Assembly (NCBI GenBank): GCA_020850355.1
Contig: JADZEX010000041.1
Span: 62,001 to 126,000, forward strand
Direction of reading: 5' to 3'
From: Fimbriimonadaceae bacterium
GTDB taxonomy: Bacteria > Armatimonadota > UBA10988
DNA length: 64,000 bases
The notes beneath the pieces are model-generated. The model was not told the origin of the DNA. It was given only the letters and a program-made list of their open reading frames with translations, and searched no databases. The position numbers and the translations under genes are program-made. This document shows, piece by piece, positions 20,743 to 26,069 of the stretch (position 1 is the stretch's first letter; each line of letters begins with the position of its first letter).

Positions 20743-22563
20743 ATGGCCGTGACCCGCGCCGGATCGGTCCCCTCCTACGAGGTCGTCGTGCAAAGCAACC
20801 GGCCGTTGCCGCTGCGCGACGGGCTGCGGCTGGCGACCGATCTCTACTTCCCGGCCCGCGACGGCCAGGTGCTCGACGGGCCGTGGCCGGTGGTCTTCCT
20901 GCGAACGCCCTACGACAAACTCGGCCATGGCGCCAGCGGGCGGTTCTACGCCGAGCGGGGCTACGTCGCCGCCATTCAGGATGTCCGCGGCCGCTACGCC
21001 TCGCCCGGTGAGTTCTATGCCTTCGCTCATGAAGGGCCTGACGGCTACGACAGCGTCGAGTGGTTGGCGGCGCAGCCCTGGTGCAACGGGCGCGTCGGCA
21101 CCTTTGGCCAGTCTTACGAAGCGGCGGTGCAAAGCGCGCTGGCGGCGCTGCACCCGCCGCACCTCGCGGCGATGATCCCGACCTTTGGCCCGTCCAGCTA
21201 CTACCACAGCTCGATGCGGCAGAACGGCGCGTTGGAGCTACGCTTCTTCGTCTACGCCTTTGGGATGCTGGCGAGCAGCCGCGAGGCCGCCGCCGACGCC
21301 AACCTGAAGGCCGCCGCCGACCGCGCCAACGCCGACATTTGGGACTGGGTGCGCGCGGCGCCGATCCGGGCCGGGGCTTCGCCGCTGGCGGCGGTGCCGT
21401 CGTACGAGCGGTGGTGCCTCGACCTGCAGCGTCATGTTTGCTACGACGACTACTGGCGTCTGCCCGGCTACGGGCCGCGGCCCTACTACGACCAGCACGC
21501 CGCTGTGCCGACGCTCTATGTCGGCGGCTGGTACGACACCTACACCCGCTCGACGTGCGAGAACTACATCGCCCTGAGCCAGCGCCAGAGCGCCCCGGTA
21601 CATCTGCTGCTGGGCCCGTGGCACCACGGCGGCGTGGGGCAGCCGACCGCGGGCGACCTCGACTTTCGACCCGAAGGCGGGCTGCCGAGCTACGAAGCGG
21701 TCCGCCTGCGCTGGTTCGACCAGTTCCTGAAAGGCCTCGAGACCGGCCTGCTGGCCGAGCCGCCGGTACGCTACTTCGTGATGGGCGGCGGCGCCGGGAT
21801 GCAGGCCGAGAGCCGCACCATCCGCCACGGCGGGCGCTGGCAGACCGCCTCGCAGTGGCCGCCGGCCGAGGTCGTGCCGACGCCCTGGTACTGCCACGCC
21901 GACGGCACGCTGGCGACGGAGCCGCCCACCAACGCCGCCGCGCCGACGGTCTGGCAGTTCGATCCCGCCAACCCCGTCCCGACCATCGGCGGCCAGCTTT
22001 CGGCCATCCCCATCCCGCCCGGCGGGTTCGACCAGCGGCAGGACAGCCGCTTCCCGTTCACCACCGGCCGCCTGCCATTGGCGGCCCGCGACGATGTGAT
22101 CGTCTTCCAGACGCCACCGCTGGAGGCCGACCTGGAGATCGTCGGCCCGCTGCGGGTGCGGCTGTGGGTCAGCACCGACGGGCTGGACACCGACTTCACG
22201 GCCAAGCTGATCGACGTCTACCCGCCCGGCCCGCACTACCCCGACGGCTGCGCGCTGTTGCTGGGCGACAGCATCCAGCGGCTGCGCTTCCGCAACGGCT
22301 ACGAGCGCGAAGAGCTGGCGACCCCGGGCGAGGTCTACGAGCTGAACTTCGAGCTGTACCCCACCGCCAACCGCTTCACTGCCGGCCACCGCCTGCGGCT
22401 CGACATCTCCAGCAGCAACTATCCGCGATTTGATGTCAACCCGAACACCGGCGGCCCGTTGGATGGCGACCGCCGCCGCCGGGTGGCCACCAATACGCTC
22501 TACCACGACCCCGCCCGGCCGTCGCAGATCATTCTGCCGGTGCGTCCGCCGGTGGCGCGCTGA
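20743..22563 (+). CDS. CocE/NonD-type X-Pro dipeptidyl-peptidase family hydrolase
   Basis: Alpha/beta-hydrolase of 606 residues. Its relatives include cocaine esterase, glutaryl-7-ACA acylase and X-Pro dipeptidyl peptidases. The nucleophile is S124 in GTFGQSYEAAV (the family's GxSYxG with the last Gly changed to Ala), the acid D265 in GGWYDTYT and the base H294 or H295 in GPWHHGG. The C-terminal jelly-roll (from about residue 430) contains LRVRLWVSTDGLDTDFTAKL and ends with LDISSSNYPRFDVNPNTG. No signal peptide is clear. ATG at 20743 has GGAGAG upstream. The last 35 bp overlap the convergent SUMF1-like gene. The substrate (amide or ester) is unknown. Confidence 0.93.
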   Translation: MAVTRAGSVPSYEVVVQSNRPLPLRDGLRLATDLYFPARDGQVLDGPWPVVFLRTPYDKLGHGASGRFYAERGYVAAIQDVRGRYASPGEFYAFAHEGPDGYDSVEWLAAQPWCNGRVGTFGQSYEAAVQSALAALHPPHLAAMIPTFGPSSYYHSSMRQNGALELRFFVYAFGMLASSREAAADANLKAAADRANADIWDWVRAAPIRAGASPLAAVPSYERWCLDLQRHVCYDDYWRLPGYGPRPYYDQHAAVPTLYVGGWYDTYTRSTCENYIALSQRQSAPVHLLLGPWHHGGVGQPTAGDLDFRPEGGLPSYEAVRLRWFDQFLKGLETGLLAEPPVRYFVMGGGAGMQAESRTIRHGGRWQTASQWPPAEVVPTPWYCHADGTLATEPPTNAAAPTVWQFDPANPVPTIGGQLSAIPIPPGGFDQRQDSRFPFTTGRLPLAARDDVIVFQTPPLEADLEIVGPLRVRLWVSTDGLDTDFTAKLIDVYPPGPHYPDGCALLLGDSIQRLRFRNGYEREELATPGEVYELNFELYPTANRFTAGHRLRLDISSSNYPRFDVNPNTGGPLDGDRRRRVATNTLYHDPARPSQIILPVRPPVAR

Positions 22564-23419
22564 GCGGGTTGGCACAGCGGAAGCCGCGGTTGGCGGCCCG
22601 TGACTCTTCGTGGTCGCGGCTGCGGTGGCTGACCCGCAGGGCGCGGTCGACCGTGTTCCAGCCGCCGCCGCGGATCGCCTTGGGGGTGTCGTCGGCGCGG
22701 TTGAGCGGGTTGCTGCTCGGCCGTCGTGAGTACCAGTCGGCTTCGTAGGTGTCGAGGCACCATTGCGCCACGTTGCCGGCCATGCCCAGCAGGCCCCAGG
22801 GATTGGCCGCGCAGGCCGCCACAGGCAGGACGTGCTGCGCGGCAGCCTGGTCGCGGTAGTCGCGCCGGCCGTCCCAGTTGGCGTTGGCCAGCGCCGGGTC
22901 GGCGGTGTCGCCCCACCAGTAGAGCCGATCCTCGATCCCGGCGCGCGCGGCGGCCTACCACTCGGCCTCGCTGGGCAGCCGGGCGCCGGCCCAGACTGCG
23001 TAGGCGCGGGCCTCGACCCACGAGACATAGACCGCCGGGTGCAGCGCTGAGGTGGCCGCCTGCCAGCTCTGCCAGGCCTTCGGCGGCGTGCAGCCGGTGG
23101 CCGCCACGAACTGCGCGAACTGCGCGTTGGTGATCGGGTGGAGGTCGATCCAGCAACCGCTCAGGCGGACTCGCGCGGCGGGCCGTTCGTCGAGGTTGGC
23201 GGTGGCGTCCCCGAGCGCCGCCCCGAGTCGCCACTCGCCGGCCGGCAGCAACGCCTGGGGCATCTGGTCGGTCGGCCGTACACGGTACTGCGCCCAGGTC
23301 CGCCCCGGCGGCAGTTGCCAGGCCGGGAGGTAGGCCGGCCAGCCCGCGGGCGGCCCCTCCTGGGCTCCGGACGATGCCACTGCCAGCAGCAGCCAGACGA
23401 GGCGGTGCAAGGTGCCCAT
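22529..23419 (-). pseudogene. SUMF1/FGE-sulfatase-domain protein interrupted by an in-frame TAG
   Basis: The exported SUMF1-like protein would be about 296 residues with a signal peptide (LHRLVWLLLAVASSGAQ). The frame is open from ATG 23419 to a TAG at 22957-22955, right after RLPSEAEW, where the family normally continues with E and an aromatic or alanine. The same frame then continues as AAARAGIEDRLYWWGDT to WGLLGMAGNVAQWCLDTYE, RGGGWNT and GFRCANPL. Both halves are therefore intact except for one codon, and a single G-to-T change (GAG to TAG on the minus strand) would explain it. TAG ends many other genes here, so recoding is unlikely. It could be a recent nonsense mutation or an assembly error. 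GGAGG lies about 10 bases before ATG 23419. Confidence 0.85.
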
Positions 23420-23473
23420 GCGGCCGAGACCCTCCACCGCCCAGTATGCCGCGGCGGCGTGACAAGCCTGTGA

Positions 23474-24428: not shown

Positions 24429-24581
24429 ATGCCGATCGGCTCGCTGTTGCTGCTGAGTCTGACCGCCCCACCCGCGCCCGGCGCCTGGCAGGTGCCGCGG
24501 GTGACGATGACCCCGAACCAACGCAAGCGAACGAATGTCCTACCAATCATGATACGACTGCACTATGAGGACGGCCGATGA
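24429..24581 (+). pseudogene. Truncated 5' end of a secreted-protein gene at the island edge
   Basis: ATG at 24429 opens a signal-peptide-like sequence (MPIGSLLLLSLTAPPAPGAW) in GC-rich, native-looking DNA, preceded by GGGGA. After about 24510 the base composition changes and the frame ends as a short unrelated tail at 24581, overlapping the GNAT gene start. The best reading is that insertion of the low-GC island removed the rest of this gene. No downstream remnant was recognised after 26040. Confidence 0.4.
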
Positions 24582-25627
24582 GCGAACAGTTGCGTTTGGT
24601 GCAGTGCGGGTCGCTGGACCCGAACGACAGCTTCTTCGACAGCCTACGCGACGACTACCAGGAGTTCACAGCCTGGTTCGCCAGCAAGTCCACCGAGCCA
24701 GTCTACATCCTCAGGTCAGGCGCCAGCCTTCTGGCGTTTCTTTACCTGAAGGTCGAGTCCGGCCCTGTGACAGACGTCACGCCTGCACTTCCACCAGCCA
24801 CACGAATCAAGATCGGCACCCTGAAGGTGGAGCCCCACGGCACCCGACTCGGTGAACGGCTGCTGAAGAAGGCGTTCGACCATGCCATCGTCGAAGGCGC
24901 CAACGAGATCTACGTTACGATCTTCGCCAAGCACGCCGCGCTCATCGACCTATTGCGACTCTATGGCTTCGAAGAGACGGCCACGAAGACTACCCCAAAC
25001 GGCACAGAGACGGTGCTCGTGAAGCGCCTCAACCACCCGGTAGGCGATCCGGTGACAGACTATCCCCAGATCCTCCAAGCCGGCACCACTCAATACCTAC
25101 TCGCAATCCAACCACAGTGGCACACACATCTGTTCCCAGACTCAATGCTAAGAACCGAGAACTATAGCATCCTAGCAGACGTTAGCCACACAAACAGCAT
25201 CGTCAAGACATATGTTTGCAGAATGGACCTAAGCTGCTTGCACGAACGCGACCTTCTGCTTGTTTATCGCACGAGTGACGGCGCGGCTCCGGCGGAGCAC
25301 CGTTCGGTGGCAACCTCGGTATGCACAGTTCTGGCGGTCCGCTCACGGAACAGCTTTTCCTCCGAAGATGCATTTGTCCGGTATGCCTTAGAGACTAGCG
25401 TCTTCCAGGAGCATGAGCTTCGGCAGTGGTGGCGTGAGTGGTCACGCCTATTCGTGGTCCAAATGCTCTACAACACAGCGCTCCCAAGGCGAGTCACCCG
25501 CCGGCAACTCGCCGAGCAGTGCAACTTGGATCGCTCGGATCGCTGGGGGTTTCTGAAGCTATCGGCCGAGCAGTTCCGGGCGGCCGTCGCCCTCGGGGGT
25601 ATCCATGAACGTATTATTGTCGATTAG
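24578..25627 (+). CDS. GNAT acetyltransferase fused to a PUA/EVE-like domain
   Basis: Predicted cytoplasmic protein of 349 residues. Residues about 40-150 form a GNAT acetyltransferase domain: IKIGTLKVEPHGTRLGERLL carries the acetyl-CoA loop (GTRLGERLL), and FAKHAALIDLLRLYGFEE is the later helix and strand. Residues about 160-345 contain YLLAIQPQWHTHLFPDS, TYVCRMDLSCLHERDLLLVY and SVCTVLAV, a pattern like PUA-fold (ASCH/EVE) domains that bind modified bases. ATG at 24578 has GAGG 7 bases upstream. The ASCH gene overlaps its end by 23 bp. The gene is AT-richer than its neighbours. It may modify an RNA or a base; no substrate can be assigned. Confidence 0.72.
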   Translation: MSEQLRLVQCGSLDPNDSFFDSLRDDYQEFTAWFASKSTEPVYILRSGASLLAFLYLKVESGPVTDVTPALPPATRIKIGTLKVEPHGTRLGERLLKKAFDHAIVEGANEIYVTIFAKHAALIDLLRLYGFEETATKTTPNGTETVLVKRLNHPVGDPVTDYPQILQAGTTQYLLAIQPQWHTHLFPDSMLRTENYSILADVSHTNSIVKTYVCRMDLSCLHERDLLLVYRTSDGAAPAEHRSVATSVCTVLAVRSRNSFSSEDAFVRYALETSVFQEHELRQWWREWSRLFVVQMLYNTALPRRVTRRQLAEQCNLDRSDRWGFLKLSAEQFRAAVALGGIHERIIVD

Positions 25628-26018
25628 GCCCTGCTATGCTGAGAGATTGCTGGATGGCAGCAAGGCGTTTGAGTACCGACGGCGTATCTTCGGCCGGCCA
25701 ATCGGCGCGCGCGTCATCCTCTACTCGTCACAGCCTGTCGGTATGTTGGTTGGCTACTTCACTGTCACCGGTGTCATCGCGGATCGACCGGCACACCTCT
25801 GGCGGAGCACGAGCCATGCCGGGGGCGTCACTCGCGCGGAGTTCTCCGCGTACTTCGGCGATTGCGAAGTTGGGTATGCATTGTGCGTCGGCCGCGTGCA
25901 GGCATTCGCGTCGCCAGTTCCTTTGGACTATCTTCTTCCTGGTCGGCGGGCGCCGCAGTCATACATGTACCTGCCCGAGAGCAATGCCCTCACCCACCTA
26001 CTGCAGGTATCACACTGA
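25605..26018 (+). CDS. ASCH-domain protein
   Basis: Small protein of 137 residues that matches the ASCH (PUA-related) fold. The N-terminus MNVLLSIRPCYAERLLDGSK contains the family GxK signature (K20), continued by E23 and R25 in AFEYRRR. ASCH proteins bind RNA or nucleosides, and E. coli YqfB of this superfamily deacetylates N4-acetylcytidine. The start at ATG 25605 is inside the GNAT gene (23-bp overlap) with a G-rich ribosome site (GGGGG, 5 bases upstream), so the two are coupled. Together they may be an acetylation/deacetylation or modified-base recognition cassette; that is an inference. Low GC. Confidence 0.75.
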   Translation: MNVLLSIRPCYAERLLDGSKAFEYRRRIFGRPIGARVILYSSQPVGMLVGYFTVTGVIADRPAHLWRSTSHAGGVTRAEFSAYFGDCEVGYALCVGRVQAFASPVPLDYLLPGRRAPQSYMYLPESNALTHLLQVSH

Positions 26019-26069
26019 TACAGCCCTGACAACGGTGTAACTGCGCGCGCGTGGCCGGAAGGACCGCTC

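What the first reader, a model, noticed from the sequence alone, without database searches (positions are those of the whole stretch)
24510..26040. GNAT-PUA-like fusion plus ASCH protein in a low-GC island
A two-gene overlapping cassette of low GC sits inside GC-rich DNA. It joins an acetyltransferase domain, a PUA-like domain and a separate ASCH protein. ASCH members include an N4-acetylcytidine amidohydrolase, so an RNA acetylation/deacetylation or modified-base-sensing pair is possible. It could also be a defence or toxin-antitoxin-like unit.
Basis: partly seen in the sequence, partly recalled or inferred. Interest (0 to 1): 0.62.

Follow-up and report, generated by a model that had tools for sequence, protein, structure and literature searches.

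The report
Overlapping GNAT-EVE and ASCH gene pair
A foreign-looking two-gene cassette, of a kind that phages and plasmids carry widely and that is thought to be a toxin with its antidote, has landed alone in an ordinary bacterial chromosome; its two genes share a short stretch of DNA in a way that is kept across very distant carriers.

Summary
ORF A (24578-25627, 349 aa) is a GNAT domain fused to a PUA-like (EVE/ASCH-fold) domain. ORF B (25605-26018, 137 aa) is an ASCH protein. The cassette is the lowest-GC stretch of its size in the window (0.59 against 0.71).

It is not a new system. Both proteins match PADLOC candidate system PDC-M11 (A 1.5e-122, B 1.8e-38). Bell et al. 2020 describe GNAT-EVE plus ASCH as a predicted toxin-antitoxin module. 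A GenBank phage record names homologues "GevT toxin" and "GevA antitoxin". Most carriers found here are phages, prophages and plasmids.

The pairing is nearly absolute: 80 of 80 viral loci found through A carry ASCH next to it (one seen only as its start codon). In 54 non-redundant tandem pairs the overlap is 23 nt (48), 29 (5) or 38 (1), always in the same frame relation. I found no mention of this overlap. Split GNAT/EVE and convergent-ASCH variants also exist.

The ac4C-deacetylase idea is not supported: the YqfB nucleophile threonine is an invariant glutamate (48 of 48). The GNAT site is atypical too.

Most likely: a horizontally acquired anti-phage toxin-antitoxin module, GNAT-EVE as toxin and ASCH as translation-coupled antitoxin. 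Toxicity and substrate are untested.

The parts
24578..25627 (+). ORF A: GNAT-EVE (PUA-like) fusion, 349 aa, predicted toxin (PDC-M11A, phrog_6345, GevT-like)
24578..25048 (+). GNAT-fold domain, residues 1-157; motif A reads H-G-T-R-L-G (first Gly of GxG replaced), usual Tyr position is L126
   Evidence: structure alignment; column counts
25076..25609 (+). EVE/PUA-like domain, residues about 167-344
   Evidence: ZmASCH Z 13.7-14.0 over residues 167-344
25605..26018 (+). ORF B: ASCH protein, 137 aa, predicted antitoxin (PDC-M11B, phrog_3136, GevA-like)
25605..25627 (+). 23-nt coding overlap of A and B (B in the +1 frame of A), conserved in relatives
25595..25599 (+). G-run upstream of the B start, inside the codons of Gly340-Gly341 of A; a candidate Shine-Dalgarno sequence
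   Evidence: position -10 is G in 45 of 49 and -9 in 48 of 49 aligned sequences; role inferred

Best explanation
A horizontally acquired, minimal two-gene toxin-antitoxin-like anti-phage module. A (GNAT-EVE) is the toxin: its PUA-like domain binds a nucleic acid, most plausibly RNA such as tRNA, and its GNAT domain transfers an acyl group onto it or onto an attached amino acid, which stops growth. B (ASCH) is the antitoxin: it binds A or competes for the same RNA. B starts inside A's last codons, behind a G-rich site that A's own glycine codons form, so ribosomes that finish A restart on B and the antidote is made alongside the toxin. If a phage upsets translation or removes B, A is released and the infected cell stops before the phage spreads. 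Shown here: fold, family, pairing, conserved overlap, foreign composition, residence of relatives in phages, prophages and plasmids. Inferred: which partner is the toxin, translational coupling, the RNA substrate, the trigger.
For: Both proteins match the PADLOC candidate defence system PDC-M11. Bell et al. 2020 (passages read) predict a toxin-antitoxin role for (PIN)-GNAT-EVE + ASCH operons. Phage PhiR47_2 (PV340567) annotates its copies 'GevT toxin' and 'GevA antitoxin' directly downstream of cI. 80 of 80 viral loci found through A carry B beside it: 74 tandem and overlapping, 1 tandem with GNAT and EVE split, 4 convergent, 1 where the contig ends just inside the overlap and only B's first codons show. 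Of 80 loci found through B: 72 tandem, 3 split, 2 tandem with a stop codon inside A, 1 convergent, 2 at a contig edge. In the home phylum all 7 genomes with a clear A hit have B next to it. The overlap carries 1.67 bits per site against 0.78 in A only and 1.13 in B only. A cI-like repressor of the families queried lies within 500 nt upstream on the same strand in 7 of 66 loci and an integrase nearby in 12 of 66.
Against: No toxicity or defence test was run here, and no paper with one was found in nine searches; the GevT/GevA names are a depositor's annotation. The GNAT acetyl-CoA motif is degenerate and the usual Tyr position is F/L/I/M, so acetyltransfer itself is not assured. The toxin comes before the antitoxin, unlike most type II pairs (recalled). 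In the window the cassette is not in a recognised prophage or defence island. Natural breaks with A lost and B kept are only 2 of 80, too few to tell toxin from antitoxin. The convergent form shows that the overlap is not obligatory.
Confidence: 0.55

Rival explanations
1. Reverse roles: the ASCH protein is the toxic RNase, like ZmASCH, and GNAT-EVE is its restrainer or modifies its RNA target.
For: B is closest in fold and sequence to ZmASCH (Z 20; E 1.9e-19), a reported single-strand RNase (PMC5615036, passages read); the ZmASCH residues Y47 and S128 correspond to Y40 and S119, invariant in 48 of 48.
Against: ZmASCH K53 aligns with G46 here. Both natural A breaks (L118, L149) keep an intact B, which fits B as the antidote better. 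The GenBank annotation has the opposite roles.
Confidence: 0.15
2. A phage accessory pair that modifies nucleic acid (base acylation or modified-base reading) to protect phage DNA or RNA from host restriction, not a toxin-antitoxin pair.
For: Bell et al. 2020 also raise protection of phages against host restriction. Relatives sit among phage structural genes, e.g. L031 between terminase large subunit and head maturation protease. A PUA-like reader domain in both proteins fits modified bases.
Against: Also kept on plasmids and here in a chromosome with no phage genes recognised beside it. In lambdoid PhiR47_2 it lies directly downstream of cI, a place expected to be on in the lysogen rather than late (recalled).
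Confidence: 0.2
3. An RNA acetylation / ac4C deacetylation pair with a YqfB-like ASCH.
For: GNAT fold and ASCH fold are both present; YqfB structures align to B at Z 9.6.
Against: The YqfB nucleophile Thr24 corresponds to Glu23, invariant in 48 of 48, and B is far closer to ZmASCH than to YqfB.
Confidence: 0.03
4. A decayed passenger without function in this genome.
For: No mobile-element genes recognised beside it; close relatives lack it (no A or B hit in 3 same-family genomes and 1 same-order genome).
Against: Both ORFs are open and full length, the overlap is intact, and the family-wide invariant residues checked are kept in both proteins.
Confidence: 0.07

Closest known systems
GNAT-EVE + ASCH operons of Bell et al. 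2020 (PMC7641849); PADLOC PDC-M11A/B; PHROG 6345 and 3136
   Same: Same domain order, same ASCH partner, same length, full-length profile matches.
   Different: Bell place GNAT-EVE mostly in beta/gamma-proteobacterial prophages; here it sits in a chromosome of another phylum with no phage genes recognised beside it. The passages found in that paper do not mention the overlap.
GevT/GevA of Escherichia phage PhiR47_2 (PV340567)
   Same: A 42.7% identical over 348 residues, same order, same 23-nt overlap.
   Different: That copy is in a lambdoid phage next to cI; roles are annotated there, unpublished in the searched library.
PIN-GNAT-EVE + ASCH (long form)
   Same: Same core domains and partner; 6 other genomes of the home phylum carry longer homologues (open frames 435-511 aa).
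   Different: The window protein lacks the N-terminal extension. PIN was recognised in only 1 of 4 long forms scanned (below Pfam's cut-off). The A/B junction differs: no 23-nt overlap was seen in the 4 long-form loci that gave both hits.
GNAT toxins TacT / AtaT (type II toxin-antitoxin; recalled)
   Same: GNAT fold, suspected toxin.
   Different: Motif A and the Tyr are atypical, a PUA-like domain is fused, and the partner is an ASCH protein encoded downstream rather than a DNA-binding antitoxin encoded upstream.
ZmASCH (PDB 5guq, 5gus)
   Same: Fold and part of the RNA cleft (Y40, Q118, S119, R25).
   Different: K53 equivalent is Gly46; nuclease activity of B is unknown.

Membership tests
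GNAT-EVE + ASCH module (PDC-M11) | GNAT domain fused to a C-terminal EVE/PUA-like domain | tested here: met
GNAT-EVE + ASCH module (PDC-M11) | ASCH protein encoded beside it in the same operon | tested here: met
   80 of 80 viral A loci have it adjacent, one of them seen only as its first codons
GNAT-EVE + ASCH module (PDC-M11) | Location in a prophage or other mobile element (common, not obligatory) | tested here: inconclusive
   Nine window proteins scanned per library gave no phage family and only one short weak PADLOC match; no tRNA in the window. The composition is foreign.
Toxin-antitoxin system | One product toxic, the other neutralises it | not testable with these tools
   Needs expression; only a GenBank annotation of a homologue
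GNAT type II toxins (TacT/AtaT) | Canonical R/Q-x-x-G-x-G/A acetyl-CoA motif and catalytic Tyr (motif recalled) | tested here: not met
   Position 90 is L/R/K/S in 49 of 49; position 126 is F/L/I/M in 49 of 49, placed with the alignment
GNAT type II toxins (TacT/AtaT) | DNA-binding antitoxin encoded upstream | tested here: not met
   Partner is an ASCH protein downstream
YqfB ac4C amidohydrolase | Lys21-Thr24-Glu74 triad | tested here: not met
   Thr24 equivalent is Glu23 in 48 of 48; Lys20 and Arg25 are kept; the match of YqfB K21/T24/R26 to K20/E23/R25 was made by spacing, not by a tool alignment
ZmASCH-type RNase | Tyr47, Lys53, Ser128 in the RNA cleft | tested here: inconclusive
   Tyr40 and Ser119 conserved 48 of 48; Lys53 aligns to Gly46; activity not tested

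The most novel reading that the evidence does not exclude
The overlap is itself the sensor. GNAT-EVE carries out an atypical acyl transfer on tRNA or another RNA, and the antitoxin can be made only by ribosomes that finish the toxin and restart inside it, so any phage-induced drop in translation starves the cell of antidote and fires the toxin. This would be a translation-coupled abortive-infection switch shared by phages, plasmids and chromosomes across phyla.
Probability: 0.2. Interest if true: 0.6.

Novelty: new member of a known kind. Interest (0 to 1): 0.33.

Why it matters
The module is a predicted but, in the papers searched, uncharacterised defence or toxin-antitoxin system found in phages, plasmids and chromosomes, including 274 of 5426 complete E. 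coli genomes. The window adds a minimal copy in a phylum where the other clear copies are longer. The fixed 23-nt overlap, the split GNAT/EVE form and the convergent ASCH form give concrete handles for testing which partner is toxic and whether coupling matters. The conserved residues narrow the chemistry: not YqfB-like deacetylation, and not a textbook GNAT site.

Tried and rejected
Empty-site test: the S10 peptidase that flanks the cassette has relatives in 2 of 4 nearest genomes and the other flanking gene in 1 of 4; the DNA next to them shows no further synteny, so the insertion junction could not be defined. No convincing flanking repeats of an insertion element.

tRNA link: prophage Lj965 has four tRNAs just upstream of the pair, but among 54 non-redundant viral loci only 2 had a tRNA anywhere in the fetched stretch, so I dropped it.

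Duplication of the two PUA-like domains: profile comparison of A with B aligns A 175-339 to B 2-130 but at probability 11% only; left open.

Defence island: nine window proteins scanned against PADLOC gave only one short weak match (34 residues, E 0.0003), in a protein 19 kb away.

Papers: PMC7641849, PMC5615036, PMC6972931, PMC12839542, PMC9519451 and PMC13190303 were read as passages around search terms, not in full; the rest were seen only in listings. Iyer et al. 2013 was not held. PMC9519451 has none of the terms ASCH, EVE, GNAT, PUA or acetyltransferase. PMC13190303 names a sister phage (PhiR47.1) but not this pair.

Full report
What is there. Two + strand ORFs overlap by 23 nt: A at 24578-25627 (349 aa) and B at 25605-26018 (137 aa). 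The cassette has GC 0.59 against 0.706 for the window, third-position GC 0.70-0.71 against 0.91-0.94 in three flanking genes, and it is the lowest-GC stretch of its length in the 64 kb. The neighbours scanned are ordinary chromosomal genes: S15 and S10 peptidases, a sulfatase-modifying-factor-like gene and a GHL10-like gene, with no Pfam hit for the gene just upstream. No tRNA lies in the window. The genome (6.67 Mb, 117 contigs) has one copy of A.

Family. Pfam gives only sub-threshold GNAT and ASCH hits. PADLOC gives PDC-M11A for A (1.5e-122) and PDC-M11B for B (1.8e-38); PHROGs give phrog_6345 (7e-124) and phrog_3136 (1.2e-34), both of unknown function. Bell et al. 2020 (PMC7641849, passages) describe GNAT-EVE fusions, often with an N-terminal PIN domain, almost always with an ASCH gene, as predicted toxin-antitoxin systems, the short form mostly in prophages; they state that none of the modules had been characterised. 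'PDC-M11' occurs in no paper of the library. GenBank PV340567 (phage PhiR47_2) labels the homologues GevT toxin and GevA antitoxin; the searches for those names found no paper on them.

Structure. The AlphaFold model of A (pLDDT 92.0, alignment of 49) splits into a GNAT fold (Z up to 15.0) and a PUA-like domain closest to ZmASCH in the list (Z 14.0, residues 170-341). B (pLDDT 94.4, alignment of 48) matches ZmASCH at Z 20.0 over 135 residues; the next entry, 2dp9, scores Z 12.1, EVE (2eve) 9.7 and YqfB (9kyf) 9.6.

Active sites. In 49 aligned A proteins the GNAT motif A keeps G92, with G88 in 48, but position 90, where the first Gly of GxG is expected, is L, R, K or S in 49 of 49; position 126, where many GNATs have Tyr, is F, L, I or M in 49 of 49. 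K78, G80, T81, K83, R94, D101, H119, Y129, K137 and E144 are invariant (positions placed from the profile alignment). So the fold is GNAT but the textbook site is not. In 48 aligned B proteins E23, K20, R25, Y40, Q118 and S119 are invariant. YqfB needs Thr24 (PMC6972931, passages); the position is Glu23 here. That match rests on the spacing of K21-T24-R26 against K20-E23-R25. ZmASCH Y47 and S128 (PMC5615036, passages) match Y40 and S119, while K53 aligns to G46.

Pairing and overlap. In 14 of 14 diverse short-form loci (the window, four genome contigs, four phages, five plasmids) B has a start codon exactly 23 nt before the end of A's stop codon; the depositor annotated 23 nt in 8 of the 9 phage and plasmid records fetched and 11 nt in one, Roseomonas. 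A viral-contig scan found 195 relatives of A, 80 returned, and 198 of B, 80 returned; only the best-scoring 80 of each were studied, and the two sets share contigs. Of the 80 A loci: 62 overlap by 23 nt, 11 by 29, 1 by 38, 1 is tandem but with GNAT and EVE as separate ORFs (L105), 4 have B convergent on the other strand (L042, L062, L083, L087), and 1 (L044) ends just inside the overlap, where B's start and first codons are visible. Of the 80 B loci: 69 overlap by 23, 3 by 29, 3 are split (L147, L173, L176), 2 have a stop codon inside A with B intact (L118, L149), 1 is convergent (L171), 2 begin at the contig edge. The 146 intact tandem pairs fall into 54 clusters at 90% identity: 48 with 23 nt, 5 with 29, 1 with 38, all the same frame relation. 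Two of these clusters hold an incomplete A (L167, L190). One of the 49 sequences aligned (L031) has no start codon at the expected place but an in-frame GTG 6 nt upstream.

In 49 aligned junctions the overlap carries 1.67 bits per site, against 0.78 in the 60 nt before it and 1.13 in the 67 nt after it; G is found at -10 in 45 and at -9 in 48, inside the codon of A's Gly340. Dual coding explains much of this conservation; translational coupling is an inference from the arrangement.

Split and convergent forms. In the four split loci an ATG lies at or within two codons after the GNAT stop codon, at the linker, so GNAT and EVE can work as separate chains. The convergent form shows that overlap is common but not obligatory, which counts against the boldest coupling idea.

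Contexts. Hits lie in 14 phage records and 33 plasmid records, the weaker plasmid hits being partial. The E. coli phage version is in 274 of 5426 complete E. coli genomes, all at 99% identity or more and all chromosomal. In PhiR47_2 the pair lies directly downstream of cI. Among 66 loci searched with proteins taken from a few of them, a cI-like repressor lies within 500 nt upstream on the same strand in 7 (and one on the other strand downstream), an integrase within 500 nt in 12, and a P-loop kinase-like gene within 500 nt in 16, always on the same strand (kinase named after phrog_761 hits). Each count is a lower bound, because few queries were used. The window has none of the three. In the home phylum A is found in 8 of 291 genomes, one of them a weak 187-aa fragment, and B in 12 of 291; all 7 genomes with a clear A have B next to it, and 5 have B without A. 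Only the window's A is the short form; the other six clear hits lie in frames of 435-511 aa. The PADLOC A model also hits 1 of 14 control genomes, Bacillus subtilis, which I did not follow.

Interpretation. The identification is secure. The most likely function is a toxin-antitoxin-like anti-phage module with GNAT-EVE as toxin. The direction of toxicity, the substrate and the trigger are inferred. This is a new member of a known kind. The additions are the conserved overlap, the split and convergent variants, the atypical GNAT site, and the exclusion of YqfB-like chemistry.

Noticed in passing
window 22532-23437, - strand: The sulfatase-modifying-factor-like gene appears as two pieces in different frames (profile positions 7-118 and 172-254), so it may be frameshifted or carry a sequencing error.
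   Followed up: partly
window 24429-24581, + strand: A 50-codon ORF with a signal-peptide-like start ends in a TGA that overlaps the ATG of A; it may be the stump of a host gene cut by the cassette, or chance. No counterpart was seen in the one relative checked.
   Followed up: partly
L105, L147, L173, L176: GNAT and EVE are separate ORFs, with an ATG at or just after the GNAT stop codon, and the ASCH gene still overlaps the EVE end.
   Followed up: partly
L042, L062, L083, L087: The ASCH gene is convergent with GNAT-EVE on the opposite strand instead of overlapping it in tandem.
   Followed up: partly
L016 3310-3885 (Lj965): Four tRNA genes (Ser, Glu, Tyr, Phe) lie just upstream of the cassette in this prophage; not general.
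   Followed up: yes
L034, L057, L058, L106, L156 and others: A P-loop kinase-like gene (phrog_761) lies directly beside the pair, upstream or downstream, in 16 of 66 loci; possible third component.
   Followed up: partly
G050, G069, G191, G201, G225 (loci L198-L202): ASCH-partner homologues without a detected GNAT-EVE gene in five genomes of the home phylum.
   Followed up: no
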